Below, in pieces: positions 26,547 to 41,211 of a DNA stretch of 42,191 nucleotides (the first letter of the stretch is position 1; the number at the start of each line of letters is the position of its first letter). Location: positions 1-42,191 of the forward strand of contig JAGXAF010000003.1 in the NCBI GenBank assembly GCA_018971675.1. The letters run 5' to 3'. The stretch comes from Bradyrhizobium sp. (lineage in GTDB: Bacteria > Pseudomonadota > Alphaproteobacteria > Rhizobiales > Xanthobacteraceae). A model generated the notes under the pieces. The model was not told where the DNA came from. It ran no database searches and saw only the letters and a program-made list of their open reading frames with translations. A program made the translations under genes and the position numbers.

Positions 26547-28325
26547 ATGACTTCCCGACGCCGCAGATCAATCCCCTGCGTGCAAGGGCGCGAACCCTTG
26601 ACAGCATTTGACCGCGACTCTACTGGTTCCAAGGCCTTGGTAGCGTGTCACGATGTGCCTTCGCTGCCCGCGGTATGGCTCCAGGCGTCTGACGTTGGAG
26701 TGCCCTTGCCCGACATCCCCGCCAGGACAAATCCGAAAGATCCGAATCCCCAGATCGTGGAGGTAACGGACCCGGTCTACAGCAAAAAACGACCGGACAT
26801 GAGCTGGCGCGATCATCTCGTCATGCTTCTGACTTCAGGCGCGGAGGTCGAGCATGCGCTGATGGTGCAGTATCTCTTCGCCGCCTACTCCATCAACAGC
26901 GACCAGCCGACCGAAGAACTCCGGGCGCTGGTCGAAGGTTGGCGAGCCAGCATCCTGTCGGTCGCCCGTGAGGAAATGGGACACCTCCTGACGGTTCAGA
27001 ACGTGCTGGTGCTGCTGGGGGCGCCGATCAGTTTCCATCGCGAGATGATGCCGTGGGATCACCAGTTCTATCCATTCCCGTTCTCGCTCGAACCGCTCTC
27101 GATCCCCACACTGCAATGCTTCATCTATGCCGAGATGCCAAGGCTTGCCGAAATAGAGCACGGCAAAATCTATCCCGAGACGCCGAAGCTGTTGGCGATG
27201 GCGCCGGGCAGACGCCGTGAAAAGGCCGCACCGTCTTCGATTGGGCCCCGTCAAGAATGGGAGTGCATCCAGGAAGTCAAACGCGACCTCGCCAAACGAT
27301 TTGGTGAAGACAACGTCAATGCCGACCTGCATCAGGTCGGCGAACTTTATCACCAGATTATCGACCTGATCTCGGACCCCCGACGGATTCCTGACTCGGA
27401 ATTCAACGAGGCAAGTTACGATATGCAGGCCGACTGGAACGATTGGGGCCGCGGCTACAAACCACAACCGCGCGAGCTCACTCCCGACGGCGATATCGAT
27501 GAGGCGGCCGGTGCCCGCAGGCTGGAGGCTGCGCCCGAATTTCCTTCCTCGATGGCTCGCCGGCACGCCCACGTGCAGGTCGAGCGCGCCGCGACTCGCG
27601 CCCAGGCCGTCAAGGCCCTGCGAGCGATATCCGCGCAGGGCGAAGCGCCCCATTTGAAAGCGGATGACACCGGCGAGCCATCCCACTTCGAGCGCTTCGT
27701 GCAAATTTACGAAGAATACAAGGCCCTCCAGAAGAACGACCCGTCCTGGAAGGCAACCTACGACGTTCCGAGAAATCCGACCACGCGAGAGGACTTCGCC
27801 AGGCTCAACCCGAAGAAAACCACCTACATTCCCGCGAACCTGGAAAGCGCGGCTGCCGCCCATTTGTTCGCCCAATTGTTCAACCAGCGCTATCGTCTGC
27901 TGCTGAACTATCTCGCACACAGCTTCCGGCTTGGCCGCAGCCAACCTTTGCATCAGCCCGGCCGGCGCGGCATGGTCATGCATCGCGCGTTCGGCGAAAT
28001 GTATCATCTCAAGACGATCGCGGGACTATTGGTGCGGCTGTCGCTTCACGATCACAAGAATCCAAAAGCGCATGCCGCTCCGCCATTCGAACTGCCGTAT
28101 ACGCTGGGGTTGCCGCTGCAGGAAATCGATATCTGGCGTCAACATCGCGACCTGATCGCGGTCTCGCAGCATACCTGCAACGAGGTTTTCCGCCTTGCCG
28201 GTGTGAGCGCCAGTTTCAAGAAAGAAGTCGGCGATATCGGCGGCGATATTTATTTGAATACGTTGATCAGGCTCGACAACGAGGCGCAGCGCTGGATCGG
28301 CGCGATCCTCGCGGGCAGGAGTTGA
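26547..28325 (+). CDS. Ferritin-like protein related to iminophenyl-pyruvate dimer synthase (VioB/RebD-type domain)
   Basis: The ferritin-like four-helix part starts near residue 85: MLLTSGAEVEHALMVQYLFAA followed by REEMGHLLTVQNVLVLLGAP. The EVEH and EEMGH motifs are the possible metal ligands, as in the VioB/RebD domain. A second helical segment (about 440-500: YLAHSFRLG, MVMHRAFGEMYHL) and C-terminal CNEVFRLAGVSASF complete the protein. 592 residues from ATG 26547, but the first 45 residues look unlike coding sequence; GTG 26700 or TTG 26706 is a possible real start. No tryptophan oxidase (VioA/RebO) is near, so bisindole synthesis is unlikely. Only 16 bases separate it from the LodA-like gene, suggesting that it works on or with that protein. 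Confidence 0.78.
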   Translation: MTSRRRRSIPCVQGREPLTAFDRDSTGSKALVACHDVPSLPAVWLQASDVGVPLPDIPARTNPKDPNPQIVEVTDPVYSKKRPDMSWRDHLVMLLTSGAEVEHALMVQYLFAAYSINSDQPTEELRALVEGWRASILSVAREEMGHLLTVQNVLVLLGAPISFHREMMPWDHQFYPFPFSLEPLSIPTLQCFIYAEMPRLAEIEHGKIYPETPKLLAMAPGRRREKAAPSSIGPRQEWECIQEVKRDLAKRFGEDNVNADLHQVGELYHQIIDLISDPRRIPDSEFNEASYDMQADWNDWGRGYKPQPRELTPDGDIDEAAGARRLEAAPEFPSSMARRHAHVQVERAATRAQAVKALRAISAQGEAPHLKADDTGEPSHFERFVQIYEEYKALQKNDPSWKATYDVPRNPTTREDFARLNPKKTTYIPANLESAAAAHLFAQLFNQRYRLLLNYLAHSFRLGRSQPLHQPGRRGMVMHRAFGEMYHLKTIAGLLVRLSLHDHKNPKAHAAPPFELPYTLGLPLQEIDIWRQHRDLIAVSQHTCNEVFRLAGVSASFKKEVGDIGGDIYLNTLIRLDNEAQRWIGAILAGRS

Positions 28326-28341
28326 ACGAAAGGGCGGATCG

Positions 28342-30681
28342 TTGACGATCAAGCAGTTGCGAATTTTGCCGCCATTCGCGATCGGCCGGCTGGGCTCGGC
28401 CAGCGAGCCGATGGACAATTATACGTTCGACCTCGATATCAATCCCGCAGATCCGCTGGGCTATCGCCAGCTCAAGGCCCAGCCGACGCTCATCGTCGAT
28501 GAAAACTCCGGCGAGATCAAAGACGAAGTCACGCCGCCAAGGCTGGAATTCAAGCACGGAGGTCGGATCCGGCCGGTTGCGCCGTTCCTTGAGGTGTATG
28601 CCATCACCGACACCGACGAAACGCTGCAACCGCTGACCACGACCCTGCTCAGGAAACACGAGCTGAACGAGCACGGCATTTCCTGGCGGGCCACCGTATC
28701 CAATCGCAAGATCGTGCGTCGAACCGGCAACCACGACGATCTCATCCACGCCCAGACGCGGTGGTTCTCCGATCACCGCAGCCACACGCTCGCCGGCAGA
28801 TGCGCCAATTTCATTTCGCCGGAGGCCTCGGTCAATTTCGGTACGGTGCGCTTCATCAAACCTAATCAGAACCACCCCGAGATCCGCCTGCGTTTCACGC
28901 CGGCTCAAGGATTGATCTACGGGCCCGATCAGCCCACTGACGATACGCAGGCCCAGGACGCCGGTTCCGACGCCTATCAAATCAGTGAAGACCGCGCGAT
29001 CTACGATCGCAGCAAGTCGTGGTTCGGTTTGGGCAGTCCGGAACACCCCGCGAGCAACCAGACCCTGCCGCCTTCGCTGTTTGCGATCAACCCGCCGGCA
29101 CCGTCCTGGCTGTTCGACAACGTCGCGATCAGCCGCGGCTATTTCGATGACGCCTGCGACGGCTTTGTCGAGGTCCAGCTCGCTCTGAAGGACGGCGGCA
29201 CCTTGACCGCCAAGGCGCGCATCTGCGCCGCGCCGCCGGCGATGGCGCCGGACTCGCTGTTCGTGCGCACGCTCGCCGACGATCTCGAACAGGTCATCAA
29301 CGGCCCCGACGTTGCGCCGAACGAGGATCCCGAGGTCACGCGGAAGCGCGCCCTCGATATTATCCGGCGCGCCTATGAGACAGTCCGCTTCATGAATGTG
29401 GCCGTGATGAACGGCAACGACTTCAAGGGCCGCCCCGCGCTTTCGCTGGATTCAATGCCTGAGGAGGAAGCCGCGGATACCCAGCGGGCCATTCGCCCGG
29501 TGATGGCTTCCGGTTCGGTGGATACGCTTGCGATCATGACCCTGCATCAGCAGGTGTTCGCGGCCCTTCAGGGCGGCGCGGCGCCATGGTTCCTGCACCT
29601 GCTGCGCCAGCCGGACGAGGTCGCCGATTTCACCGACCGCGGACGGCGCAAGATGCCGGCGCTGATGTGCGGCGCCGACAACAACTATCTGGCGCTGACC
29701 TGGCGGCAGATCGACACCATCCGCAAGGCCGCTGAAGGTTTGCCTGCGCCGAAGCCGAATGCTGCGGCCGCCGCCGTTCAAAAAGGCCTGACGCCGAAAA
29801 ACCTGTCGGCGCAAATCTCCTATGAGGCCAAGGGTAATCCGATCAGTTCGCGCCCCGTCACGTCGGTCGCCAATTGCTGTCCGGGACTGGAGGTCGATTT
29901 CCGCGCGGTCTGGCGCCGGCTGTTCAAGGGCATCGAGCTGCGCGAGTACGACAACCTCGTCATTGAGGTAGCCAAGGATTGCGACGCGATCGTCAAGAGC
30001 AGCGACGGCGGCGACCTGAAGCCGAGCCAGCTTGCCGGCCATCGCCTGCTGCGCGTCGTCCTGCCACCGGAAAATGGCGGCAAGGAATTTCTGATGATGA
30101 CGCCGATGTGGGGCCCGTCCTCCTCGGATTCCGAGGGCAAGATCAGGCTGACCACCAGCAGCAATCCGGATGGCATGGCGGCGGTCGAGTGGTCGAACGC
30201 GCTGGCGCGGATCCTGCCCTGCAAGGGATCGATGGTTCGTTGCGATTTCAGCGCTGAAGCGTCGGATCAGCAGATGGCGCTGGTGGAGGAATCCGATGAC
30301 GGGCCGAAGAACTATGTGAGCTTCCTTTGCGAGGTGCAGGCCTTTTTCGAGGACGACACCGCAGTCATTTCCGCTGCGCTCGCCGATGCCGGCGAACTCA
30401 CGCAAGGGTTATGCTCGCCCTGGCAAAACGACTATCGCGAATGCTCCTGCTATTACTGGGCTTCCGCCCGGCCCGACTATGTCAATGTCGAATTCACCGC
30501 GAGCGGGCTGAGCACCGGCGACAACTGGATGCAGCGGGAGCGCTCCGGCTCCTACGTCGCCGATGATTATGCCGACACGCGCCTTCTGATGTATGATGAG
30601 CTGTTTGCGCGGTGGGAGCAGGCGCTGAAGTTTCAGATCGGCGGACGCGACGCTCCCGACGAGACGGGCGGGAAAACGTGA
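28342..30681 (+). CDS. Divergent LodA/GoxA-like protein, candidate cysteine-tryptophylquinone oxidase
   Basis: LodA and GoxA are amino-acid oxidases whose cofactor (CTQ) is made from their own Cys and Trp with help from a flavoprotein. Similarity here is by eye: RILPPFAIGRLGSA near the start (LodA-like IyPpIGIARvG), RPVAPFLEVYAIT, NCCPGLEVDFRAVWRR at 511-526 (LodA family C.GG.F.PGIE) and LTQGLCSPWQNDYREC at 686-701 (LodA PWQaD..C), then ARPDYV. Candidate cofactor residues are Cys701 or Cys703 with Trp706 or Trp729; this spacing is much shorter than in LodA (Cys516, Trp581). 779 residues, 13 cysteines, no signal peptide. TTG start at 28342. Its stop overlaps the GTG start of the radical SAM gene. 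The substrate is unknown, and the CTQ assignment is inference. Confidence 0.62.
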   Translation: MTIKQLRILPPFAIGRLGSASEPMDNYTFDLDINPADPLGYRQLKAQPTLIVDENSGEIKDEVTPPRLEFKHGGRIRPVAPFLEVYAITDTDETLQPLTTTLLRKHELNEHGISWRATVSNRKIVRRTGNHDDLIHAQTRWFSDHRSHTLAGRCANFISPEASVNFGTVRFIKPNQNHPEIRLRFTPAQGLIYGPDQPTDDTQAQDAGSDAYQISEDRAIYDRSKSWFGLGSPEHPASNQTLPPSLFAINPPAPSWLFDNVAISRGYFDDACDGFVEVQLALKDGGTLTAKARICAAPPAMAPDSLFVRTLADDLEQVINGPDVAPNEDPEVTRKRALDIIRRAYETVRFMNVAVMNGNDFKGRPALSLDSMPEEEAADTQRAIRPVMASGSVDTLAIMTLHQQVFAALQGGAAPWFLHLLRQPDEVADFTDRGRRKMPALMCGADNNYLALTWRQIDTIRKAAEGLPAPKPNAAAAAVQKGLTPKNLSAQISYEAKGNPISSRPVTSVANCCPGLEVDFRAVWRRLFKGIELREYDNLVIEVAKDCDAIVKSSDGGDLKPSQLAGHRLLRVVLPPENGGKEFLMMTPMWGPSSSDSEGKIRLTTSSNPDGMAAVEWSNALARILPCKGSMVRCDFSAEASDQQMALVEESDDGPKNYVSFLCEVQAFFEDDTAVISAALADAGELTQGLCSPWQNDYRECSCYYWASARPDYVNVEFTASGLSTGDNWMQRERSGSYVADDYADTRLLMYDELFARWEQALKFQIGGRDAPDETGGKT

Positions 30682-32036
30682 GTCTCGCCGACGCCTCGCA
30701 TTACATGCGCATTTCGTCGCCGCGTACACCGCAAGTTCATTTGATCGAAAGCGCACGGGGCGGTCATCTCTTTGTCGCCGACGGCAGCCGTCTGTTCGAC
30801 GCCGATGCCAGCCTGTTCGCGAGCTACCGGTCGGCGATCGAGGGTGGCAGCGAGGCAATCGAGGCGCTGCTCCGCCAGGCTGGTCTGGTCGAGCGTCCCT
30901 TCATCGATGATATGCCGCTGGCGCCGCCGCCGTTGCGCGCGCTCTCGCTGGCGATTGCCCAGAAGTGCAATCTCGGCTGCACCTATTGCTACGCCCAGCA
31001 GGGTGAGTTCGGCGGCATCGCCAGGAACATGGAGCTGACCGAGGCCCATCGCGCGGTCGATCTGTTGGTGGCCCGCGCAGAACCCGGCGCGCGCCTCAAC
31101 CTGGCGTTCCTCGGCGGTGAACCGCTGGTCAACCGCAAGGTGCTGCGTGCCGCGACCCTGCACGCGCTGGAACAAGCGGGCCGGCGAGGCGCGAAAATCA
31201 CCTTCTCGATCACCACCAACGGCACGCTCTTGACCGAGGACGACGGGCGTTTTTTCGAAGAGCACGGCTTCGCCGTGACAGTCAGCGTCGACGGCCCGCG
31301 GGAAGTCCATGATGCGCAGCGCCCCTTCAAGGGCGGTAGCGGCAGTTTTGACACGGTGATGAAACGCGTCGCGCCGCTATTGAAGATGCAGCAACGCATG
31401 CAGGTTTCGGCTCGCGTGACGGTGACACCGCACAATATCTCGTTGCGCCGGACGCTCGACACCTTCGTCGCCGCCGGCTTTCACAGCGTCGGCTTTTCGC
31501 CTATGCTGAGCGCCCCCACCGCTGCGGGCGAGATGCAGTCCGGGGATCTCGAACTCATGCTGGGCGAAATGATCGATTGCGGGCGGGAATACGAACGCGC
31601 TTCGCGGAGTCGTCGGCGTTATCCCTTCGCCAACATGGTCAACGCCATGCGCGAGATTCATCGGGGCACCCACCGCCCCTACCCTTGCGGCGCCGGCGCC
31701 GGCTATCTCGGCGTCTCCGCCGAAGGCGAGCTGTCCGCGTGCCACCGCTTCGTCGGCGACAAGGAAGGCGCGATGGGTTCGCTCGACGACGGCGTCGATA
31801 CGTCCCGTCAGGCCGATTGGTTGGCCGCACGGCATGTTCACCGGCAGGAGCCCTGCCGGTCCTGTTGGGCGCGTTATCTTTGCGGCGGCGGCTGTCACCA
31901 CGAAGTGATCCGGCGTGGACGGCCGGCCTGCGATTACATCCGGGGCTGGCTGCATTATTGCCTCGAAGCCTATCTAAGATTGTCATCCGAGCCGGAAACA
32001 ATGGGGCGCGACCTCGCAGGAATGGCCCATGGCTGA
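30678..32036 (+). CDS. Radical SAM/SPASM protein-modifying enzyme, QhpD/PeaB-like
   Basis: Iron-sulfur enzyme using S-adenosylmethionine radicals, most likely to crosslink or otherwise modify a protein. The radical SAM cluster motif is CNLGCTYC (Cys97, 101, 104 from GTG 30678). The AdoMet site region is LAFLGGEPLVNRKVL (GGE motif), then ITTNGTLLTEDD. The C-terminal SPASM domain for extra [4Fe-4S] clusters has CGAGAGYLGVSAEGELSAC, then EPCRSCWARYLCGGGCHHEV and CDYIRGWLHYC. An N-terminal segment of about 85 residues resembles that of peptide-maturing relatives. 452 residues. GTG 30678 overlaps the stop of the LodA-like gene (GTGA), so that protein is the obvious substrate candidate. It overlaps the next gene by 8 bases. 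Confidence 0.88.
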   Translation: MSLADASHYMRISSPRTPQVHLIESARGGHLFVADGSRLFDADASLFASYRSAIEGGSEAIEALLRQAGLVERPFIDDMPLAPPPLRALSLAIAQKCNLGCTYCYAQQGEFGGIARNMELTEAHRAVDLLVARAEPGARLNLAFLGGEPLVNRKVLRAATLHALEQAGRRGAKITFSITTNGTLLTEDDGRFFEEHGFAVTVSVDGPREVHDAQRPFKGGSGSFDTVMKRVAPLLKMQQRMQVSARVTVTPHNISLRRTLDTFVAAGFHSVGFSPMLSAPTAAGEMQSGDLELMLGEMIDCGREYERASRSRRRYPFANMVNAMREIHRGTHRPYPCGAGAGYLGVSAEGELSACHRFVGDKEGAMGSLDDGVDTSRQADWLAARHVHRQEPCRSCWARYLCGGGCHHEVIRRGRPACDYIRGWLHYCLEAYLRLSSEPETMGRDLAGMAHG

Positions 32037-33441
32037 GGTCTGCGTCATTGGTGCCGGACCCGCCGGCAGCATCTTCGCCGCGCGCATGGCCCAGCTTGGA
32101 CATCAGGTCGATCTGATCGAGCGGCAACGCTTTCCCCGGTCGCATTTGGGCGAATCCCTAAGTCCAGGCGTCATGCCCCTGCTTCAGGCGGCCGGCATGC
32201 GCGAGACGATCGAGGCGGCCGGCTTCCCGAGCGTGACAGGCGTTTGGGTGAATTGGGCCCAGCAACCGCGACTGCGGCAGGATCCCGGCGAAAGGGGTCT
32301 CTTGGTCGATCGCGGTGAATTCGACCGCCGGCTGCTGGCGCGCGCCCGCGCCTTCGGCGTGCGGGTTCACCAACCCGCGCGCGTTCTCGAACGAACCCGT
32401 GACGATGCAAAATGGCATCTCGCCATCGAAGCCGACGGCGCTTTCGTGCGGCTTGACGCCGATTTCGTGGCGGATGCAAGCGGACGGCGCGGCATCTCGC
32501 GACAGCGCCGCATCAGGAAGGGTGCGGCTACGCTGGCGGTTTATGGCTATTGGCGGGGGAAAAGCCAGCCGACCGTGCCGCGCATCGAAGCAGGCCACAA
32601 TGCGTGGTATTGGGGCGTTCCGCTGCCCGACGGCAGCTACAACACGCTGATATTTGTCGATCCTGACCGGTTCAGGTCCGCGCCCGGCACGACAATGTCG
32701 GAGCGCTTTCTGCGCTTGCTTGATCGCTCCACGCTGATGAACGATTGCCGCGACGCCGAGCTGATCGCGGCGGTGCGCGCCATCGATGCGACGCCTTATC
32801 TCAGCGGCGATTGCGTCGCGCCAGACCGAATTGAGCTCGGCGACGCGGCGCTGGCGATCGACCCGATATCCTCGAGCGGCGTTCAAAAGGCCATTCAGAC
32901 CGCGCTCTCCGGCGCCATCGTCGCCAACACGCTGCTGCGCCGGTCCGAATCCACCGACGCCGCACTGAGCTTCTATCGCGCGCAACTTGGCGAAGCCTCG
33001 GAACGTCATCGCCGCTGGGCGGCCGAACATTATCGCGACGTTGCAGAGCGTTGCGCCGGTCCGTTCTGGCAACAGCGCGCCGGCCCGCAGGCTGTGACGG
33101 ACCCCGCGCCGCTTCCCGCGATCGACGCACGCGGCTTCGCCACCACGCCCGTGGAGCTGTCGCCCGAGCTGGAATTCGCGCCCACGCCCTGCCTGCAAGG
33201 CGATTTCGTCAGCCTCGCCCCTGCTTTGCATCATCCGCGCCTGGCCAGTCCGATTGCGTTCCTGGGTGGACGCGAGCTGGCGCCGCTGCTTCGCATCTTG
33301 CAGCCGGGCAGAACGCCGCTGCAGATCGCGCAATCCTGGTCAAACCGCATGCCGCTGCAATCCGGATTGGCGATCGCGGGCTGGCTGGTCAATCATGGCA
33401 TCCTGGTCGAGCAGCGCGGCCGCAGCGGTATGCCGTCATGA
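32029..33441 (+). CDS. FAD-dependent monooxygenase, LodB/QhpG/tryptophan-halogenase-like, with PqqD-like C-terminal tail
   Basis: The N-terminal FAD-binding motif is CVIGAGPAGSIFAARMAQLG (5-24), followed by LIERQRFPRSHLGESLSPG as in flavin halogenases and geranylgeranyl-reductase-type enzymes. VADASGRRG is near 147-155 and GDAALAIDPISSSGVQKAI at 271-289 is the second FAD contact. The halogenase lysine motif was not seen. LodB and QhpG, of this fold, hydroxylate the Trp that becomes CTQ, which fits the neighbours. Residues about 411-463 (ELAPLLRILQPGRTPLQIA then GWLVNHGILVEQRG) look like a small winged-helix PqqD/RRE-like unit that could hold the protein substrate. 470 residues. ATGA overlap with the cyclase gene downstream. 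Confidence 0.85.
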   Translation: MAEVCVIGAGPAGSIFAARMAQLGHQVDLIERQRFPRSHLGESLSPGVMPLLQAAGMRETIEAAGFPSVTGVWVNWAQQPRLRQDPGERGLLVDRGEFDRRLLARARAFGVRVHQPARVLERTRDDAKWHLAIEADGAFVRLDADFVADASGRRGISRQRRIRKGAATLAVYGYWRGKSQPTVPRIEAGHNAWYWGVPLPDGSYNTLIFVDPDRFRSAPGTTMSERFLRLLDRSTLMNDCRDAELIAAVRAIDATPYLSGDCVAPDRIELGDAALAIDPISSSGVQKAIQTALSGAIVANTLLRRSESTDAALSFYRAQLGEASERHRRWAAEHYRDVAERCAGPFWQQRAGPQAVTDPAPLPAIDARGFATTPVELSPELEFAPTPCLQGDFVSLAPALHHPRLASPIAFLGGRELAPLLRILQPGRTPLQIAQSWSNRMPLQSGLAIAGWLVNHGILVEQRGRSGMPS

Positions 33442-36400
33442 AAGCCACGCCTCTTTCGGAATGGCTCGAACTCCACGGACTGGAGCGATTTCTCGACACT
33501 TTCGAGAACAACGAGGTCGATCTGGCGACGCTCCGGATGCTCACCGAAAGCGACCTCCAGGAACTTGGCCTGCCGTTCGGCCCGCGCAAGCGGATCGTCA
33601 ATCTGTTGCGTTGGGAGAAATCGACAGAGAAGGCGGGGATTGCCCATCAGATCGATACAGCGACGAGTGAACGGCGCCATTTGACCGTCCTGTTCTGCGA
33701 CATGGTGGGCTTCACCAAGCTCTCCTACAAGCTCGATCCCGAAGCCATGCAGATCGTGCTTCGCAAATACGAGGAAGCCTGCGAGACCTGCGTCAATCGT
33801 TACGAAGGATATATCTTCAGGATACTCGGCGATGGCGTCGTCGCCTTCTTCGGCTTTCCTCTGGCGCATGAGGCCGAGTCCGAACGGGCGATCCGTGCCG
33901 GGCTGGATATCGTCGACACCTTCGCGCAGCTGCATCTACCGGACGTCGGGCGACTGCAGGTGCGGATCGGCATCACGTCGGGCATGGCGGTCGTCGCCTC
34001 GGGCGAGCGAAACGCGGTGGGCGAGACCATCAATCTCGCCGCGCGCCTCCAAACCATTGCCAAGCCCGGCTCCATCATCGTGAGCGAAAGCGTGCGCCGG
34101 ATGGCGGGCGGCAGCTTTGAATACGAAGACCTCGGCGAGAAAGAACTGAAAGGGGTCAGCGAGCCGACCAGGATTTATCGCGTGCTCGGTGTCAGCCGGG
34201 CCGAAAGCCGCTTCGAAGCGGCGACGCAGCGCGAGCTGACCCCCATCGTCGGGCGCGACGCGGAAATCTCGGCGTTGCTCGACGACTGGCGGCAGGTGCA
34301 AGAAACCGGGGTGGGACGGGCGATCCTGCTGCGAGGAGAATCCGGAATCGGAAAGAGCCGGATGGCCAGCGCGCTGCGCGAGCGCACCCAGGACGAAGGC
34401 CGCCAGACCATGGTGTTTCAATGCTCGCCCTTCTTCGTCAATAGCGCCTTTTATCCGATCAGGGCATCTTTCGAACGCGCGCTGCCGCCAAGCCATGACG
34501 CGGAAACCCGGCTGGACAAGCTCGAAGCGCTGGCCATCGATCGCCTTGGCCTTGCCAGGGACGACGTGCGCCTGATCGCGGCGTTGCTTTCGATTCCGCA
34601 CGAAAAGCGCTACGGCCCGATTCTCCTTTCGGCGAAGCTCGCCAAGGAAGAGACGATGCGCGTCCTGATCGAGTTTGTTCGCGCCCAGGCGCGGATGAGG
34701 CCGACGCTGCTTCTGTTCGAGGACGCGCACTGGGCAGACCCGACGTCGCTGGACCTGCTCACCCGCTTCATCGAACTGCTACCCGACATTCCTACGCTGC
34801 TTGTCATCACCACGCGTCCCGAGCTTAATTCGCCCTTGGCGACCGACCCGGCCGTCACTGTGATGATTCTGGCCAAATTCACCCCGGTTGAGAGCGAGTC
34901 GCTGGTCGCCAATGTCGTCGGCGGAAAGGCGTTGCCGCCGGGCCTCGCCGCCCGGATCATCGCCCGGACCGACGGCGTTCCCCTGTTCGTCGAGGAACTG
35001 ACCAAAACCATCCTGGAGTCCGGCGACCTGATCGTCGAAGGCGATCATTACGCCTATGCCGGGACTCCGGCCGGCATCAGGATCCCCGAGACGCTGCGCG
35101 ACTCGCTGATGGCCCGCCTCGATCGGGTTGCAGCCAGCAAGGAAATCGCGCAGGTCGGTTCGGTCATTGGCCGTGAGTTCAGCTATGAACTGTGTGCCGG
35201 ACTCGAACTGATGAGCGAAGACGCCCTGATCAAGGGTCTGCAGCATCTGACCGCGTCCGGGCTTGCGACCTGTCGAGGCGAGATTCCCAATGCGGTCTAT
35301 ACGTTCTCCCACGCTTTGGTGCAGGACGCCGCCTATGACTCGCTGCTGAAGAGCAGGCGCAAGCAGTTGCACGGCGATATCGCTAATCTCCTGGAAGAGC
35401 GCTGGCCGGACACGCGCAATAGGGCACCCGAACTGCTCGCCTTTCATTACAATTCCGCAGAGCAGTTCCGCGTTGCTGCGCCGCTTTGGCTCCGCGCCGG
35501 CGAAGTCGCGATGCAGCGCTTTGCCCTGCCCGAAGCCATTACCCATTTACGCACCGGCATGTCGGCAGTGTCGAAGCTACGGCCGTCCAAAGCCCGCGAT
35601 CGGGTGGAAATTTCGCTACGAACCGCGCTCGGGCCGGCTCTGGTGGCGTACCGCGGCTGGGCTCACGCGGAGGTCAGCCAGACTCTGGTGCCTGCCTGGC
35701 GGCTTGCGCATGCGCTTGAGCAAAGCAACGCCTATCTCCCGATCCTGAACGCGTTGTGGGTGCATTACATGACCGCGGGCAAATTGACGGAGTCGCTGCG
35801 CTGGGCGGGCAGGCTCTCGAGAGCCGGCGTAGAACTCGGCGACGACGGCCTTGAAATCTTCGGCCACCGCGCAGCCGCCGCTTCCTATTACTGGCTCGGC
35901 GAATTCGCCAAGGCCCGCCGCCGCGGCGACAAGGTTCTCAAACTTTACGATCCGGAGCGGCATTGGGGTCTCGCTACCCTTACCAACACCGACCCTTTCA
36001 CTGGCGAAGGCATCTATCGCAGCCAACTGCTCTGGATGATGGGTTATCCCGAGCAGGCGCTGGCGGCGAACCATGCGATGGAAGCCAACACGCGGCGCAG
36101 GGGTCATCCGTTTGACCTCGCCTTTGCGCTGACGCTGGGCGCGCAATTGTTCAGCTATCTCGGCGATTCCGATACGCTGCAGCGATGCGCCGAAGAGGCC
36201 GAACGGATCGGCAAGGAACACGGCATCGCCCTGCTCGGCGAGATCATGGTGGAGATCAGCCGCGGCGTGGCCTTGCTCGATGCGGGGCGTTTGGCCGAAG
36301 CATTGCCGCAACTCGATCAGGGCATCGAGCGACTGATGCAGACCGGACATCGGGTCTGGATCCACTATCTCAGGGCGCGGCAGGCTGCATGCCTCGCACG

Positions 36401-36815
36401 AACCGGAGACCATGAGCGCGCATGGACGCTGATTGAGGAAGCGGTCACCCGGGCCGAGGCCAGCGAGGAACGGTCGCACCACGCCGAGATACTGCGCCTG
36501 AAGGGCTGGATCCAGATCCTGCGTGGCCATCCCGATGAGGCGATCCCAACCTTGCGCGAGGCGATCGCGGTCGCGCGCAAACAGGCGGCGAAATCCTGGG
36601 AGTTGCGCGCCGCGACCACGCTGGCGCGCCTGCTGGCCAGCCGCGGCAAGCAGGCCGAAGCGCTCGGGCTGCTTGAGCCGCTCCATGACTGGTTCACCGA
36701 AGGGCGCGACACCAGGGATTTGAAGGAAGCGGCCCAGCTTCTAGGCGAGATTCGCAGCGCAGCCGGGCGGCGACCCCGGAGCACCGCCAGATCGAAAGCC
36801 GACGAGGGAGAATGA
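33438..36815 (+). CDS. SAM-domain class III nucleotide cyclase with AAA/STAND ATPase and TPR repeats
   Basis: Multidomain signalling protein of 1125 residues, no membrane segment. In order: a sterile alpha motif domain (about 5-58, LSEWLELHGLERFLDTF); a class III adenylate/guanylate cyclase (about 80-250) with metal Asp88 in FCDMVGFTKLS, Asp132 in ILGDGVVAFFG and Asn199/Arg203 in ETINLAARLQ; an AAA/STAND ATPase with Walker A GESGIGKS (300-307) and Walker B LLLFEDAHWAD; then helical TPR-like repeats to the end (about 780-1100). Such proteins are numerous in Bradyrhizobium. The start ATG 33438 overlaps the flavoprotein stop (ATGA), so it is made together with the LodA-like set; a longer open frame upstream runs inside the flavoprotein gene and was not used. 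The nucleotide product and its target are unknown. Confidence 0.92.
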   Translation: MKATPLSEWLELHGLERFLDTFENNEVDLATLRMLTESDLQELGLPFGPRKRIVNLLRWEKSTEKAGIAHQIDTATSERRHLTVLFCDMVGFTKLSYKLDPEAMQIVLRKYEEACETCVNRYEGYIFRILGDGVVAFFGFPLAHEAESERAIRAGLDIVDTFAQLHLPDVGRLQVRIGITSGMAVVASGERNAVGETINLAARLQTIAKPGSIIVSESVRRMAGGSFEYEDLGEKELKGVSEPTRIYRVLGVSRAESRFEAATQRELTPIVGRDAEISALLDDWRQVQETGVGRAILLRGESGIGKSRMASALRERTQDEGRQTMVFQCSPFFVNSAFYPIRASFERALPPSHDAETRLDKLEALAIDRLGLARDDVRLIAALLSIPHEKRYGPILLSAKLAKEETMRVLIEFVRAQARMRPTLLLFEDAHWADPTSLDLLTRFIELLPDIPTLLVITTRPELNSPLATDPAVTVMILAKFTPVESESLVANVVGGKALPPGLAARIIARTDGVPLFVEELTKTILESGDLIVEGDHYAYAGTPAGIRIPETLRDSLMARLDRVAASKEIAQVGSVIGREFSYELCAGLELMSEDALIKGLQHLTASGLATCRGEIPNAVYTFSHALVQDAAYDSLLKSRRKQLHGDIANLLEERWPDTRNRAPELLAFHYNSAEQFRVAAPLWLRAGEVAMQRFALPEAITHLRTGMSAVSKLRPSKARDRVEISLRTALGPALVAYRGWAHAEVSQTLVPAWRLAHALEQSNAYLPILNALWVHYMTAGKLTESLRWAGRLSRAGVELGDDGLEIFGHRAAAASYYWLGEFAKARRRGDKVLKLYDPERHWGLATLTNTDPFTGEGIYRSQLLWMMGYPEQALAANHAMEANTRRRGHPFDLAFALTLGAQLFSYLGDSDTLQRCAEEAERIGKEHGIALLGEIMVEISRGVALLDAGRLAEALPQLDQGIERLMQTGHRVWIHYLRARQAACLARTGDHERAWTLIEEAVTRAEASEERSHHAEILRLKGWIQILRGHPDEAIPTLREAIAVARKQAAKSWELRAATTLARLLASRGKQAEALGLLEPLHDWFTEGRDTRDLKEAAQLLGEIRSAAGRRPRSTARSKADEGE

Positions 36816-37240
36816 CGATGTCTGACAAGAAGCATCACGCCGAAGAAGCCGCGATCCGCAAGCTCGACGCGGAATGGAGCAAGGCCGCGCAAGACAAGGA
36901 CCTCGATCGCGTCATAACCTTTTATGCAAAGGACGGTTCGGTGGTCTGGCCCGAGAACCCGGCCGCCCGCGGCCATGCCGCGATCCGCGCACGCTGGGAG
37001 GCCGCGTACAAATCGACGCCCGATCTCTATCTGCGGTTTGAGCCGACCCACATCGAGGTCTCGGAGGACGGCGACATGGCCTCCGATTTCGGCGTGGTGT
37101 ATTTCGCGCCGAACGTCAAACCCGACGACACCCAGAATGTCGGCAAATATCTCGTGGTCTGGCAGCGCCAGAACGGCGCGTGGAAAGTGCTCTACGACTG
37201 CTACAACATGAACGGCACCAACAATCCGGTGAAGCAGTAA
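36812..37240 (+). CDS. SnoaL-like / DUF4440 (NTF2-fold) protein
   Basis: Small cone-shaped alpha+beta barrel protein; family members include steroid isomerases, polyketide cyclases and many of unknown role. Typical sequence: EEAAIRKLDAEWSKAAQDKD, RVITFYAKDGSVVWPENPA, ARWEAAYKSTPDLYLRFEP and GKYLVVWQRQNGAWKVLYDC. 142 residues. The first ATG (36812) overlaps the cyclase stop; a second ATG at 36818 is also possible, with GAGGGAG just upstream of both. It is the last gene of the run and ends 10 bases before the convergent regulator gene. The role in the set is unknown. Confidence 0.85.
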   Translation: MTMSDKKHHAEEAAIRKLDAEWSKAAQDKDLDRVITFYAKDGSVVWPENPAARGHAAIRARWEAAYKSTPDLYLRFEPTHIEVSEDGDMASDFGVVYFAPNVKPDDTQNVGKYLVVWQRQNGAWKVLYDCYNMNGTNNPVKQ

Positions 37241-37250
37241 GCGCGATCAT

Positions 37251-38189
37251 CTAACCCGCCCTCGCCGCGCGGCGCAGCGATTGCGGCGGCTGGCCGAAGG
37301 CGCGGAGGAAGGCGCGGCGCATCCGTTCGGGATCGCGGAAGCCGGTGGTCTCGGCGACGCGCTCGATCGCGGCGCTGGAAGATTGCACCTGCTCCCGCGC
37401 CACCTCGATCCTGAGCCGCTCGACCGCCTTCGACGGCGTCGAGCCGGTCTCGGCCACGAAGGCGCGGGTAAAATGTCGGGTGCTCATGCCCGCGCGCTCG
37501 GCCAACGCCTCCACCGTCAGCGGTTCGTCGAGATGCTCGCGCGCCCAGGCGAGCAGCGGCCCGAAGCGACCTGTCGGCGCTTTCAACTCCAATAGCGAGG
37601 AGAATTGCGACTGGCCGCCGCTGCGGCGGTGATACAGCACCAACTGACGCGCGGTGTCCTGCGCGACCTCGTCGCCGAAATCCTCCGCCACCATGGCAAG
37701 CGCGAGGTCGATGCCGGCGCTGATGCCGGCCGAGGTCCAGATATTGCCGTCGCGGGTGAAGATCCGGTCGGGCTCCAGTTTCACCTTGGGATAGGCGGCG
37801 AGGAAATCCTGGGTGCGGCGCCAATGCGTGGTGGCGCGGCGGCCGTCGAGGAGGCCCGCTTCGGCAAGAATATAGGCTCCCGAGCAGACGCTGGCGACGC
37901 GAACGCCGCGCCTGCCCATCGCGCGCACGAAGCCAAGCGTCTTTTCGCATTTGGCGGCGATCCGTATCCCCGAACCTCCGGCCACGATCAGCGTGGTGAT
38001 CGCCGCGTGCGGCCGCAAGCCGCGCGCCAGCAACTCGACGCCGGACGAACTGCGAACCGGGCCCGGATTCACGGCGATGGTCTTGATGGCCGGACCGGCG
38101 CCGCGGTGGCGCATGGCGATCTCGAACACCGAGATCGGACCGGCCGCGTCGAGCAGCTGAAAGTCCGGAAAAATCAGAATGCCGATCAT
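37251..38189 (-). CDS. GlxA/FtrA-type AraC-family regulator with DJ-1/PfpI-like sensor domain
   Basis: The N-terminal DJ-1/PfpI domain (about 1-185) starts IGILIFPDFQLLDAAGPISVF and carries the nucleophile-elbow Cys in VASVCSGAYILAEAGLLDG followed by ATTHWRRTQDF. The C-terminal pair of AraC helix-turn-helix motifs (about 215-308) has LTVEALAERAGMSTRHFTRAF and IERVAETTGFRDPERMRRAF. 312 residues, normal for this group. In such proteins the first domain senses a small amino- or nitrogen-containing compound. Divergent from a gene for a free DJ-1/PfpI protein of the isonitrile-hydratase type, with a shared inverted repeat between them, so it most likely controls that gene. Confidence 0.93.
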   Translation of the reverse strand: MIGILIFPDFQLLDAAGPISVFEIAMRHRGAGPAIKTIAVNPGPVRSSSGVELLARGLRPHAAITTLIVAGGSGIRIAAKCEKTLGFVRAMGRRGVRVASVCSGAYILAEAGLLDGRRATTHWRRTQDFLAAYPKVKLEPDRIFTRDGNIWTSAGISAGIDLALAMVAEDFGDEVAQDTARQLVLYHRRSGGQSQFSSLLELKAPTGRFGPLLAWAREHLDEPLTVEALAERAGMSTRHFTRAFVAETGSTPSKAVERLRIEVAREQVQSSSAAIERVAETTGFRDPERMRRAFLRAFGQPPQSLRRAARAG

Positions 38190-38200
38190 GACCTGACCAT

Positions 38201-38235
38201 GTCTTTAAATGAGGGAAATATGTCATTTAAGACAG
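38201..38235. promoter_or_regulatory. Inverted-repeat operator between divergent regulator and DJ-1/PfpI genes
   Basis: TGTCTTTAAATGA (38201-38213) and TCATTTAAGACA (38224-38235) are inverted copies differing by one extra T, separated by 10 bases. It starts 12 bases from the regulator start (38189) and ends 84 bases before the DJ-1/PfpI start (38320). The position suits a regulator that represses itself and activates or represses the divergent gene. Confidence 0.65.
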
Positions 38236-38319
38236 CGAGCCGAACATGCCACTATGCTGACGTCAAGCAAAACTTCGACCGACCGCAAATTCGGCGAATA
38301 ACCCCGAAAGGCTCCTTCG

Positions 38320-39006
38320 ATGTCGGCATCCCTGCAGATCGGTCTGGTGATATTTCCGAAGGTCACCCAGCTCGACATGACCGGCCCGTTGCAGGTGTTT
38401 GCCGCCGTGCCGGGCGCAACGCTGCATCTGATCTGGAAGCGGATCGAGCCGGTCGCCAGCGACTCCGTGCTGACGCTGACGCCCACCATGACCTTTGCCG
38501 ATTGCCCGCAGCTCGACGTGATCTGCGTCCCCGGCGGCGCCGGCACCAACGACATGGTCAACGACGAGGAGATGCTCGCCTTCCTGCGCCAGCAGGCGGC
38601 GGGCGCCAAATATATTACCTCGGTCTGCACGGGATCTCTGGTGCTGGGCTCAGCCGGCCTGCTCAGGGGTTATCGCGCCGCGACGCACTGGGCCGCGATG
38701 GAGTTTCTCGAACCGTTCGGCGCGATCCCGACCAATACCCGCGTCTGTGTCGACCGCAATCGCATCACCGGCGGCGGCGTGACCGCGGGCATCGATTTCG
38801 CGCTGACGCTGATCGCGATCCTGATCGACCGCAAGACCGCCGAGGCGATCCAGCTGGGGCTCGAATACAATCCGGCGCCACCCTTCAATGCCGGCTCGCC
38901 CGACGTCGCGCCAAGCGAAGTACTCGCATCGGTGAATGAAAGATTGGCAAGCACCCGGCCGCGCCGCAGCGAGGCCATGCGCCGCGCCGCGGCACGGCTC
39001 GCCTGA
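38320..39006 (+). CDS. DJ-1/PfpI family protein, isonitrile-hydratase-like
   Basis: Free DJ-1/PfpI-fold protein of 228 residues: LQIGLVIFPKVTQLDMTGPLQV, DVICVPGGAGTNDMV, and the nucleophile-elbow Cys in ITSVCTGSLVLGSAGLLRG followed by AATHWAAMEFL; then RVCVDRNRITGGGVTAGID. This pattern matches isonitrile hydratase (InhA, forming N-substituted formamides) and relatives, but the exact reaction is not proven by sequence. It shares the fold with the divergent AraC-type regulator, suggesting that enzyme and sensor recognise the same kind of compound. A terminator follows 31 bases after the stop. Confidence 0.88.
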   Translation: MSASLQIGLVIFPKVTQLDMTGPLQVFAAVPGATLHLIWKRIEPVASDSVLTLTPTMTFADCPQLDVICVPGGAGTNDMVNDEEMLAFLRQQAAGAKYITSVCTGSLVLGSAGLLRGYRAATHWAAMEFLEPFGAIPTNTRVCVDRNRITGGGVTAGIDFALTLIAILIDRKTAEAIQLGLEYNPAPPFNAGSPDVAPSEVLASVNERLASTRPRRSEAMRRAAARLA

Positions 39007-39037
39007 ACGGCACTCGGAGATCGAGCGCGCCGATATG

Positions 39038-39070
39038 AAAAAGGCCGCCTGGTTTCCCAGACGGCCTTTC
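39038..39070 (+). terminator. Rho-independent terminator after the DJ-1/PfpI gene
   Basis: AAAGGCCG and CGGCCTTT, with inner CTGG/CCAG pairs and one mismatch, form a stem around a loop of TTTC at about 39040-39069. The T-run is short (TTTCCT). A- and T-rich feet on both sides would let it work in both directions. Confidence 0.75.
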
Positions 39071-39324
39071 CTGTCCTACGGCGGCTCCACATTTTGACGG
39101 GCGATCTCAGAACCTCTGCACCGGGGGCCTATCTCCCAGCCGTATCCTGATCGGCAGCCGCTGCATGTCGGGGCAGTCGCGAACTGTTGCCCGAACCCGA
39201 CGCGATGGTTTCCCATCTCCGTAAGATGCCGCCATTGAGCCGTGATCGCATCCCGGGCGCAAGAACGTAACGACGGACGCGCGGGAATTTCCCCGCTGAT
39301 CCCGTTGTTCACAAGGCTGATGCC
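39071..39324. other. Non-coding stretch between terminator and NDUFA12 gene
   Basis: With the terminator, the gap from 39007 to 39324 is 318 bases. The only frames here are short, lack ribosome sites and resemble no family. A small palindrome GGGAATTTCCC-like element lies near 39280-39292. I see no RNA gene or mobile-element end. This is the right boundary of the presumed accessory block. Confidence 0.4.
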
Positions 39325-39735
39325 TCAGCTTCCCGGCGTCCACGGCTGGTAGTCGCCGGTGGCCTTTGGCCTGCGGCCGCTTGCCAGCGTCGAGCCAGCC
39401 GGGCGATAGGCCGCGGGCGTCCCCGTCATGTTCGGGACATGCGGCTTTTCCCATTCACGCGGCGTGTAACTCTCTTCGGTCGGCGCGACATCGACGGTGT
39501 GGTGCAGCCAGCCGTGCCACGACGGCGGCACGCGGCTGGCATCGGCATAGCCATTATAGATGACCCAGCGCCGCTCGAAGCCGAGCGTCGGATCGATCTT
39601 GCGGCCCTTGGTGCGGAAGTAGCGGTTACCCTGCTCGTCCGTACCCACCAGTTCGCCGAACCGCCGGGTCCACAATTGGGTGCCGAAAGTCTGGCTGTTC
39701 CACCAGGTGAATATTTTGAGCAGGAATTGTTTCAT
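39325..39735 (-). CDS. NADH:ubiquinone oxidoreductase accessory subunit, NDUFA12 (B17.2) family
   Basis: Supernumerary complex I subunit shared by alphaproteobacteria and mitochondria; binds the matrix/cytoplasmic arm and helps assembly. MKQFLLKIFTWWNSQTFGTQ then LWTRRFGELVGTDEQGNRYF, RRWVIYNGYADASRVPPSWHGWLHHT and PREWEKPHVPNMTGTPAAY are the family's signature stretches. 136 residues, typical. It stands alone here. In many relatives this gene sits beside the DUF2155 gene and aat, which here lie at 22.1-23.8 kb; the separation suggests that DNA was inserted or rearranged between them. Confidence 0.95.
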   Translation of the reverse strand: MKQFLLKIFTWWNSQTFGTQLWTRRFGELVGTDEQGNRYFRTKGRKIDPTLGFERRWVIYNGYADASRVPPSWHGWLHHTVDVAPTEESYTPREWEKPHVPNMTGTPAAYRPAGSTLASGRRPKATGDYQPWTPGS

Positions 39736-39950
39736 CGGGGAGGCGTCAGTTCGAACCGCGGTTGCGATCCTGATGCCATCGGCGGCCCGAAATGTCCAGT
39801 TTCGAGCCTTGAGGCCGGATGGCGAATTGTCGCGGAATAGCGTTCTTCACACGGTTGGGGTCTCGCGGTCTGCCATTATCGTGCAATTGGGGGTCGGAAC
39901 CTTCACCCCTCGCAGGGGTTGGCAGGTATCCCGCCAGAGGAGACCCTATA

Positions 39951-40439
39951 ATGATCAGTCTGAAAGTCTTGAGTACCGCTGCTGCGATGACGCTGGTTTT
40001 GCCAATAGCCACGTCGACCGCCAGTTTCGCCGACCCGCCCCATCGCGCCGGCCCGCGCCCCGCCGGCAGCAGCTTCCATCCGAGTGGTAACTTTCATCCG
40101 AGTGGCAATGTCCACTTCAGCGGCGGCGGCAACTATCACCATGGTGGCGGCTTCGGTCCCGGCGTAGCCGCGGGCATTGCCGGTGCCGCGATCGGAGGCG
40201 CCATTGCATCGCAGACTTATTATGGCGGCCCGGGCTACTACTACGACACCGGTCCGGCCTATGTTGCCGGTGCGGCCAACTATGATGACCAGTACGATGA
40301 CGACAGCGGCGTCACGGTGGCCGAGGTGCCGGCGACCGGCGGTGGCGACGTCGCCTACTGCATGCAGACCTATCGTTCCTACGATCCGCAATCGGGCACC
40401 TATCTGGGCTTTGACGGTTATCGCCATCCCTGCCCGTGA
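39951..40439 (+). CDS. BA14K-family secreted protein, Gly/His/Tyr-rich
   Basis: The start is ATG 39951 with GAGGAGA at 39937-39943; the open frame upstream is leader. Signal peptide (MISLKVLSTAAAMTLVLP, cleavage after SFA near 24). Residues 30-60 contain a repeated NFHPSG unit and a Gly/His-rich run, followed by a glycine-zipper-like segment (GVAAGIAGAAIGGAIAS) and a Tyr/Gly/Asp-rich part. The C-terminal BA14K-like part is YCMQTYRSYDPQSGTYLGFD then YRHPCP with two cysteines. 162 residues. BA14K proteins are named for a Brucella immunoreactive protein with lectin-like properties; the role here is unknown. Followed by a strong terminator. Confidence 0.88.
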   Translation: MISLKVLSTAAAMTLVLPIATSTASFADPPHRAGPRPAGSSFHPSGNFHPSGNVHFSGGGNYHHGGGFGPGVAAGIAGAAIGGAIASQTYYGGPGYYYDTGPAYVAGAANYDDQYDDDSGVTVAEVPATGGGDVAYCMQTYRSYDPQSGTYLGFDGYRHPCP

Positions 40440-40483
40440 CGGGCGGCCCTTCACCGCAAGACTCGAACAAGACTCGAAATCGA

Positions 40484-40514
40484 GGACGGCGCGGGTGGCG
40501 CGCCGTCCGTTTCG
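40484..40514 (+). terminator. Rho-independent terminator after the BA14K gene
   Basis: Perfect 10-bp stem GGACGGCGCG / CGCGCCGTCC (40484-40493, 40499-40508) around a 5-base loop, followed by GTTTCGT. It begins 45 bases after the stop codon. Confidence 0.85.
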
Positions 40515-40743
40515 TGTCCGGCCCATGGCGCCCCGCAGGCATCGACGAGCCCGCAACCAGGCAGCCTGATCTGAGTCTCCCAAGCGCAATGCCACAACCG
40601 CAAGAAATCGTTGTCCTGTGAACAGCGGGAGCAGCCCGGATTCCACACCCCGAAGAACAATTTTTTGGCTTGGAATCCCTGAGGACTCACTGATACTTGC
40701 CCAAGAAACGGGAGCGGGTTACCCCCCTGTTTTTCTCCGTTTT

Positions 40744-40759
40744 CCACCATATTTAGTAT
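40744..40759. promoter_or_regulatory. Candidate NrdR box upstream of nrdJ
   Basis: CCACCATATTTAGTAT fits the known NrdR consensus acaCwATATaTwGtgt at its conserved core positions. NrdR represses ribonucleotide reductase genes and usually uses two boxes one or more helical turns apart; a clear second box was not found. It lies 25 bases upstream of the putative -35 element. Confidence 0.45.
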
Positions 40760-40784
40760 TTGATTCAGGAAGTCGTACTAATCC

Positions 40785-40813
40785 TTGACGGGCGTCCAGG
40801 AGTTGCCTAGCTT
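40785..40813 (+). promoter_or_regulatory. Sigma70-like promoter for nrdJ
   Basis: TTGACG (40785-40790), a 17-base spacer and TAGCTT (40808-40813) make a reasonable housekeeping promoter in an AT-richer island, directed toward nrdJ. It predicts a transcript start near 40820 and hence a long leader. Confidence 0.5.
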
Positions 40814-40957
40814 CCGGCCTGTTCGGCGCGAGTGTGTTTGGGTCCCCCGCCGGTCGCTCCCAAAAGGGTTCCAGAATAACCACTCCGACGGCCGGTTGAG
40901 GCAGCGGGTGCAGGGTGTTTGTGCCCTGAATTCAGGGAAATTCGGGGCGTGAAAAAC

Positions 40958-40973
40958 GGGCCGGAAACGGCCC
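40958..40973 (+). promoter_or_regulatory. GNRA-tetraloop hairpin in the nrdJ leader
   Basis: GGGCCG and CGGCCC form a perfect 6-bp stem closed by GAAA, a very stable RNA motif. No T-run follows, so it is not a terminator. It lies 239 bases before the nrdJ start. Confidence 0.5.
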
Positions 40974-41211
40974 AGAACGATGGGTTGGGGCGTTGAATGC
41001 ATGAGCTGGAGGACCCGGAAACGGGCGCTTCAGCATCGTGTCGCGGCAAGGCGGTGCTCGCACCGGTTTGCCGCCGAAGAGAAACAGGCCGGATCCACCG
41101 GCTGAGCTGCGGATCGCCGGATCACGGGCAACAACCCGGACAAGGCATCCGCTCAAGGATAACATCCGGCCCGAGGAACAGCGGTCCGGCAGGCAGAAGC
41201 GGGGCACTACC

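What the first reader, a model, noticed from the sequence alone, without database searches (positions are those of the whole stretch)
26547..33441. Candidate new protein-cofactor or crosslink system: ferritin-like + LodA-like + radical SAM/SPASM + flavin monooxygenase
Seen: four same-strand genes, separated by 16 bases or overlapping, encode a VioB/RebD-type ferritin-like protein, a divergent LodA/GoxA-like protein, a radical SAM/SPASM enzyme and an FAD monooxygenase. Known: LodA/GoxA need only a LodB-type flavoprotein to make CTQ, while quinohemoprotein amine dehydrogenase needs a radical SAM enzyme (QhpD) plus a flavoprotein (QhpG) acting on a small subunit, QhpC. Here no small QhpC-like peptide, heme subunit or protease gene is present. 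Inference: the radical SAM and flavin enzymes act on the LodA-like protein itself (or on the ferritin-like protein), giving a hybrid quinoprotein-type system that, to my knowledge, has not been characterised.
Basis: partly seen in the sequence, partly recalled or inferred. Interest (0 to 1): 0.88.

Follow-up and report, generated by a model that had tools for sequence, protein, structure and literature searches.

The report
LodA-type quinone enzyme with QHNDH maturases
A four-gene set found in the same order in seven bacterial phyla joins a relative of the quinone-cofactor oxidase LodA to relatives of the two enzymes that build the cofactor of a different amine dehydrogenase, and it likely makes a thioether-crosslinked quinone enzyme of a kind that I could not find described.

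The parts
26547..28325 (+). FER: ferritin-like protein, 592 aa; predicted two helical bundles, the first with conserved E102, E143, H146, E196, E366, H380 (predicted dimetal site)
28342..30681 (+). LOD: divergent LodA/GoxA-family protein, 779 aa, TTG start; likely substrate of both maturases and the catalytic protein
30412..30477 (+). LOD residues 691-712, CSPWQNDYRECSCYYWASARPD: candidate CTQ pair C701/W706 and candidate thioether pairs C691-D697 and C703-D712
   Evidence: 119/120 and 120/120 listed database relatives, the window's own protein included; LodA C516 aligns with C701; 0/120 canonical LodA-like proteins have Cys within 5 residues before PWQ or after the CTQ Cys; same C-x5-D-x3-C spacing as QhpC C27-D33-C37
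30678..32036 (+). RSAM: radical SAM/SPASM enzyme nearest to QhpD (start GTG 30678 or ATG 30705)
   Evidence: best NCBIfam model TIGR03906 QhpD 321.9 bits, below its cut-off 453; CX3CX2C and 7 SPASM Cys kept
32029..33441 (+). FMO: QhpG-type FAD monooxygenase (peptidyl tryptophan dihydroxylase family)
   Evidence: NF049967 QhpG 327.4 bits, cut-off 240, whole model 1-423; two canonical LodB-type proteins 163-167 bits, ending at model position 337-340
33438..36815 (+). CYC: SAM-domain/adenylate cyclase/AAA/TPR protein, ATGA-overlapped with FMO; accessory neighbour in one part of the family, not a core part
   Evidence: Pfam, sequence; >=300 bits in 14 of 80 loci

Best explanation
The operon likely makes and matures one LodA-fold quinone enzyme: RSAM is predicted to link C691 to D697 and C703 to D712 of LOD by Cys-Asp thioethers, and FMO is predicted to oxidise W706 so that it joins C701 as cysteine tryptophylquinone (CTQ). 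Shown by sequence: the four-gene set, its conservation, LOD's LodA homology, RSAM's and FMO's nearness to QhpD and QhpG, and the conserved pattern. Inferred from the families: QhpD makes Cys-to-Asp/Glu thioethers and QhpG dihydroxylates the CTQ Trp in QhpC (PMC7876137), so the same order (thioethers first, then Trp oxidation, then Cys-Trp closure) would act here on a large protein without a leader peptide or QhpE protease. The mature LOD would deaminate an amine or amino acid oxidatively. FER would be a dimetal partner that handles the imine product or oxygen/peroxide; this last step is the weakest. Where LOD is split, the C-terminal gene product would carry all crosslinks, like a QhpC subunit.
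For: Order FER-LOD-RSAM-FMO in 69 of 80 loci; 8 of the other 11 are cut by contig ends and 2 are rearranged with all four present. All 73 loci with an FMO match also have an RSAM match. LOD homologous to LodA/GoxA; LodA C516 aligns with C701. The whole pattern is in 119/120 and 120/120 listed relatives; 0 of 120 canonical LodA-like proteins, and none of 8 canonical proteins fetched, have cysteines at the two extra places. hhalign of LOD's C-terminal half with 5 QhpC sequences picks this segment, score 27.2, P 0.0015; 0 of 120 column shuffles reach it (best 26.0); the N-terminal half gives P 0.3. RSAM is nearest QhpD, then PapB, both Cys-Asp thioether formers (PMC8172795, PMC11002830 passages); in 289 class genomes the only 5 other strong RSAM matches are in genomes with QhpC. 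FMO is above the QhpG cut-off and has the QhpG C-terminal stretch that two LodB-type proteins lack. No conserved Cys in FER. No QhpC found in the window's genome.
Against: RSAM is below the QhpD equivalog cut-off, and three members do not match the first 48-85 positions of that model. The QhpC-LOD match is short, hhalign probability only 16.8%; the second Cys-Asp spacing is 9 against 8 in QhpC, the C-C spacing 2 against 4. Locus L018 has FER and LOD with the intact pattern but no RSAM or FMO match in its 3.1-Mb MAG. Most of the 80 loci were found through a search word inside the motif, WQNDYREC (only 9 of 81, the window's own included, carry another of the search words), so conservation of that part, with D697 and C701, is partly built in; C691, C703, W706 and D712 lie outside it. 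The 120-row lists hold the nearest relatives only. Model confidence is 50-62 at residues 691-720 and no distances could be measured; Foldseek TM-scores to LodA/GoxA are only 0.24-0.43. The own-genome QhpC search had a silent control set and the assembly is 83% complete, though the same model worked in 4 of 190 class genomes. The set is sporadic. Substrate and FER role are guesses.
Confidence: 0.7

Rival explanations
1. LOD is the substrate and becomes a CTQ or similar quinone enzyme, but the radical SAM enzyme likely makes other bonds: for example C701-W706 or C703-aromatic links, or a Cys linked to a residue other than D697/D712.
For: Several other invariant residues lie in the same 22-residue segment (E700, Y705, R710); spacing of the second Cys-Asp pair differs from QhpC; RSAM matches other thioether maturase models well too (PapB 265.9, Nif11 243.1 bits).
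Against: The first pair has exactly the QhpC C27-D33 spacing, and D697 aligns with the Asp of the PWQ-x-D motif in LodA; QhpD is the best model.
Confidence: 0.15
2. LOD gets its CTQ in the ordinary LodA way (autocatalytic first hydroxylation plus one flavoprotein), and the radical SAM enzyme serves only a structural or unrelated modification.
For: LodA and GoxA make CTQ with one flavoprotein (PMC4417212, PMC7876137 passages); C701/W706 correspond to the LodA pair.
Against: FMO scores as QhpG, not LodB/GoxB (327 against 100 and 121 bits), and all 73 loci with an FMO match also have RSAM.
Confidence: 0.08
3. The maturases act on FER or on an unlinked peptide, and LOD is only a co-transcribed enzyme.
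For: Many RiPP-type maturases need a leader peptide for substrate recognition (PMC11002830 passage), and QhpD uses the QhpC leader (PMC7876137 passage).
Against: FER has no conserved Cys; no other gene family recurs beside the set in more than 14 of 80 loci; no QhpC found in the genome.
Confidence: 0.04
4. The four genes form a non-catalytic or decayed LodA relative whose crosslinked segment is structural, not a redox cofactor.
For: LOD is very divergent from LodA and GoxA (11-20% identity in structure alignments).
Against: The CTQ Cys, the nearby Asp and the Trp are kept and so is a tryptophan-dihydroxylase-type FMO.
Confidence: 0.03

Closest known systems
LodA/GoxA CTQ-dependent amino acid oxidases with LodB/GoxB
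   Different: Extra C691, C703 and D712; the CTQ Trp 5 residues after the Cys, against 12-22 in 119 of 120 canonical proteins and 65 in LodA itself; a radical SAM gene, a ferritin-like gene, a QhpG-type instead of LodB-type flavoprotein, and a split form of the protein.
Quinohemoprotein amine dehydrogenase maturation (QhpD, QhpG acting on QhpC)
   Same: RSAM nearest QhpD, FMO above the QhpG cut-off, and a C-x5-D-x3-C...C...W-x5-D pattern in the target.
   Different: The target is a 779-residue LodA-type protein (or a half of about 270-290 residues), not a 9-kDa subunit with a leader; no QhpC family match in the genome; no protease or haem-protein family seen among the recurrent neighbours that I looked at.
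Ranthipeptide maturase PapB (freyrasin)
   Same: Second-best model for RSAM (265.9 bits); makes Cys-Asp thioethers (PMC8172795, PMC11002830 passages).
   Different: Below its cut-off 340; no Cys-rich precursor peptide seen.
VioB/RebD and PF12902 ferritin-like proteins (3hl1, CC_0557)
   Different: 38 bits to the VioB equivalog against a cut-off of 1250; FER has a second helical bundle like a bacterioferritin subunit.
Fungal lodA clusters with PF12902 genes (Campillo-Brocal 2015, PMC4417212)
   Same: A PF12902 gene lies near lodA-like and lodB-like genes.
   Different: In that paper's main text 'radical SAM' does not occur and the association is told for five fungal genes; the bacterial four-gene set is not described in the passages that I read.

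Membership tests
LodA/GoxA family (PF17990/PF18417) | Sequence homology to LodA_N and LodA_C | tested here: met
   36/39 members match LodA_C and 20/39 LodA_N at E<=0.01; profile-profile P 2.1e-11. The window protein alone is below the LodA_N cut-off (19.7 against 26.3).
LodA/GoxA family (PF17990/PF18417) | LodA fold | tested here: met
LodA/GoxA family (PF17990/PF18417) | CTQ cysteine and tryptophan | tested here: met
   C701 aligned with LodA C516 by profile; W706 placed by its motif (W followed by R-P) as in canonical members, not by a profile alignment.
LodA (NF038172) or GoxA (NF038173) equivalog | Score above curated cut-off | tested here: not met
   16.3 against 600 and 23.1 against 750 bits.
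LodA/GoxA family (PF17990/PF18417) | LodB/GoxB-type flavoprotein partner | tested here: not met
   FMO 100 and 121 bits to LodB and GoxB models (cut-off 400), 327 to QhpG (cut-off 240).
QHNDH system | QhpG monooxygenase | tested here: met
   NF049967 327.4 bits, above 240, whole model; 3 further members 271-320.
QHNDH system | QhpD equivalog | tested here: not met
   321.9, 312.7 and 366.3 bits against cut-off 453; a QhpD beside QhpC scores 721.
QHNDH system | QhpC gamma subunit (PF08992) | tested here: not met
   0 matches in the window's own genome, which is 83% complete; controls were silent, but the same model found 4 of 190 class genomes.
QHNDH system | Haem-bearing QhpA, QhpB, protease QhpE, exporter QhpF | tested here: inconclusive
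   Not searched one by one. Of the recurrent neighbour families, none identified is a protease or haem protein; a MacB/FtsX-type permease recurs in 8 loci.
PF12902 Ferritin-like | Domain score above cut-off | tested here: met
   FER 102.1 bits, cut-off 22.3.
VioB | TIGR04492 equivalog | tested here: not met
   38.2 against 1250 bits.
CTQ enzyme | Cofactor and amine or amino acid oxidation | not testable with these tools
   Needs purified protein, absorbance, phenylhydrazine adduct and mass spectrometry.

The most novel reading that the evidence does not exclude
This is a third route to CTQ: a LodA-type enzyme in which a radical SAM enzyme stitches two Cys-Asp thioethers into the globular catalytic protein itself, without leader peptide or protease, before a QhpG-type enzyme builds the quinone. 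It would be the evolutionary bridge between the LodA/GoxA oxidases and QHNDH, with the split form showing how a CTQ-bearing domain can become a separate small subunit, and with a dimetal ferritin-like protein as a new redox partner.
Probability: 0.55. Interest if true: 0.87.

Novelty: new variant of a known kind. Interest (0 to 1): 0.76.

Why it matters
CTQ enzymes were known in two forms with separate maturation logics: LodA/GoxA with one flavoprotein, and QHNDH with QhpD and QhpG on a tiny subunit. A widespread set that puts the QHNDH-type maturases beside a LodA-type protein makes the relation between the two forms testable, would extend radical SAM thioether chemistry to a folded protein of about 85 kDa, and offers new oxidases with built-in crosslinks. 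The conserved pattern names the residues to mutate. It would also give a function to proteins mostly without one: among the 120 relatives listed (of 1412 matches at E<=0.001) the source names say 'hypothetical protein' where they say anything readable.

Tried and rejected
Rejected: a chance or strain-specific cluster. FER as crosslink target (no conserved Cys). A separate small QhpC-like gene: no PF08992 match in the genome and no recurrent small gene family seen. 'VioB-type enzyme' for FER.

Dropped rows: L051 and L080 (broken reading frames) and five incomplete loci (L014, L016, L017, L036, L060) were left out of the LOD tree; L016 and P0069 end before the motif. The 80 loci are the best 80 of 127.

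Full report
What is there. Four genes on the + strand, FER 26547-28325, LOD 28342-30681, RSAM 30678 (GTG, 4-base overlap with LOD) or 30705 (ATG) to 32036, and FMO 32029-33441, are packed with a 16-base gap and overlaps. A fifth gene, CYC (33438-36815; sterile-alpha-motif, cyclase, AAA and TPR domains), overlaps FMO by 4 bases.

Conservation. A scan of genome contigs with the LOD protein found 127 relatives and kept the best 80 loci. In 69 of 80 the order is FER-LOD-RSAM-FMO on one strand. Of the other 11, eight (L011, L013, L014, L016, L017, L032, L036, L051) run into a contig end, L002 has FMO upstream, L064 has RSAM and FMO some kilobases upstream, and L018, a 3.1-Mb Gemmatimonadetes MAG, has FER and LOD but no match for RSAM or FMO. 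All 73 loci with an FMO match have RSAM. The loci with the full order lie in Pseudomonadota, Acidobacteriota, Verrucomicrobiota, Myxococcota, Planctomycetota, Bacteroidota and Actinomycetota (trees; titles). The set is sporadic: only the window's own genome has it among 398 genomes of its phylum. No other gene family recurs at this level: in an all-against-all comparison of 967 ORFs the next family that is not antisense, CYC, is in 12 loci (14 of 80 by score).

The segment. LOD residues 690-716 read LCSPWQNDYRECSCYYWASARPDYVNV and are nearly invariant. C701 aligns with LodA C516, the CTQ cysteine (PMC4417212 passage). QhpC of QHNDH reads LC27QPMEAD33LYGC37SDPC41WW43PAQVPD49 (PDB 1jmx_G); there C27-D33 and C41-D49 are thioethers and C37-W43 is the CTQ (PMC8172795 passage). 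LOD therefore has C691-D697 with the same spacing as C27-D33, C701 and W706 at the CTQ places, and C703-D712 near the place of C41-D49. hhalign of LOD's C-terminal half with five QhpC sequences selects just this stretch (P 0.0015, probability 16.8%); 0 of 120 column shuffles score as high, the best 26.0 against 27.2. This is modest statistics and I lean on it only together with the maturases. Of 240 database relatives listed in two searches, the window's own protein included, 239 have the pattern and one ends before it. Of 120 canonical LodA-like proteins, 0 have a Cys within five residues before PWQ or after the CTQ Cys. LodA itself has a Cys directly before PWQ, one place away from C691.

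The maturases. RSAM's best of 68 NCBIfam matches is QhpD, 321.9 bits (cut-off 453), then PapB 265.9; two other members give 313 and 366, a QhpD beside QhpC 721. In 289 class genomes 6 have a strong RSAM match: the window's and 5 others (35-39% identity), all of which have QhpC. FMO reaches 327.4 bits for QhpG (cut-off 240); three other members 271-320, QhpG proteins of qhp clusters 425 and 456, two LodB-type proteins 163 and 167, whose match stops at model position 337-340 of 423. Trees put FMO (support 97/98) and RSAM (80/98) of this system in single groups apart from QhpG, LodB and QhpD.

Split form. In 18 of 74 tree rows LOD is two genes, broken at about residue 465-480; the tree needs six changes (breakpoints), and in 8 of 18 the two genes share an ATGA. 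The CTQ segment is then in a product of mostly 270-290 residues. Some of these C-terminal products are named 'LodA/GoxA family CTQ-dependent oxidase' by NCBI, so the LodA kinship is known to annotators, but not, in what I could search, the pairing with QhpD/QhpG-type maturases.

Mechanism. See best explanation. Shown: genes, order, homology, pattern. Inferred: thioether positions, CTQ, order of steps, oxidase activity, FER's role. Weak points: the search word inside the motif, L018, sub-threshold QhpD score, low model confidence at 691-720.

Papers. PMC7876137, PMC11002830 and PMC8172795: passages only; PMC4417212: abstract, outline and passages; others only as search listings (one search listed none). 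The VioA/VioB logic behind the guess on FER is recalled.

Noticed in passing
33438-36815: SAM-domain/adenylate cyclase/AAA/TPR gene ATGA-overlapped with FMO; at least 300 bits in 14 of 80 loci, so a possible regulator in one part of the family.
   Followed up: partly
L032, L045, L061-L070, L072, L073, L075-L077, L079: LOD encoded by two genes, N about 465 and C about 280 residues, on several branches of the tree.
   Followed up: yes
L018:10325-13369: Where RSAM and FMO would be, a fused phosphotransferase-peptidase M23-class III aminotransferase ORF follows LOD.
   Followed up: partly
L020:4708-6255, also L021, L027, L028, L055, L058: A gene family of about 500 residues lies near FER in six loci; two members scanned have no Pfam match.
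   Followed up: partly
L039:13373-15724 and relatives in 8 loci: A MacB/FtsX-type permease follows the set in Chitinophagaceae loci.
   Followed up: partly
window 1-26440 and 36815-42191: The flanking genes scanned look like ordinary rhizobial chromosome: biotin carboxylase, penicillin-binding protein, histidine kinases, Leu/Phe-tRNA protein transferase, cation/proton antiporter, BA14K.
   Followed up: no
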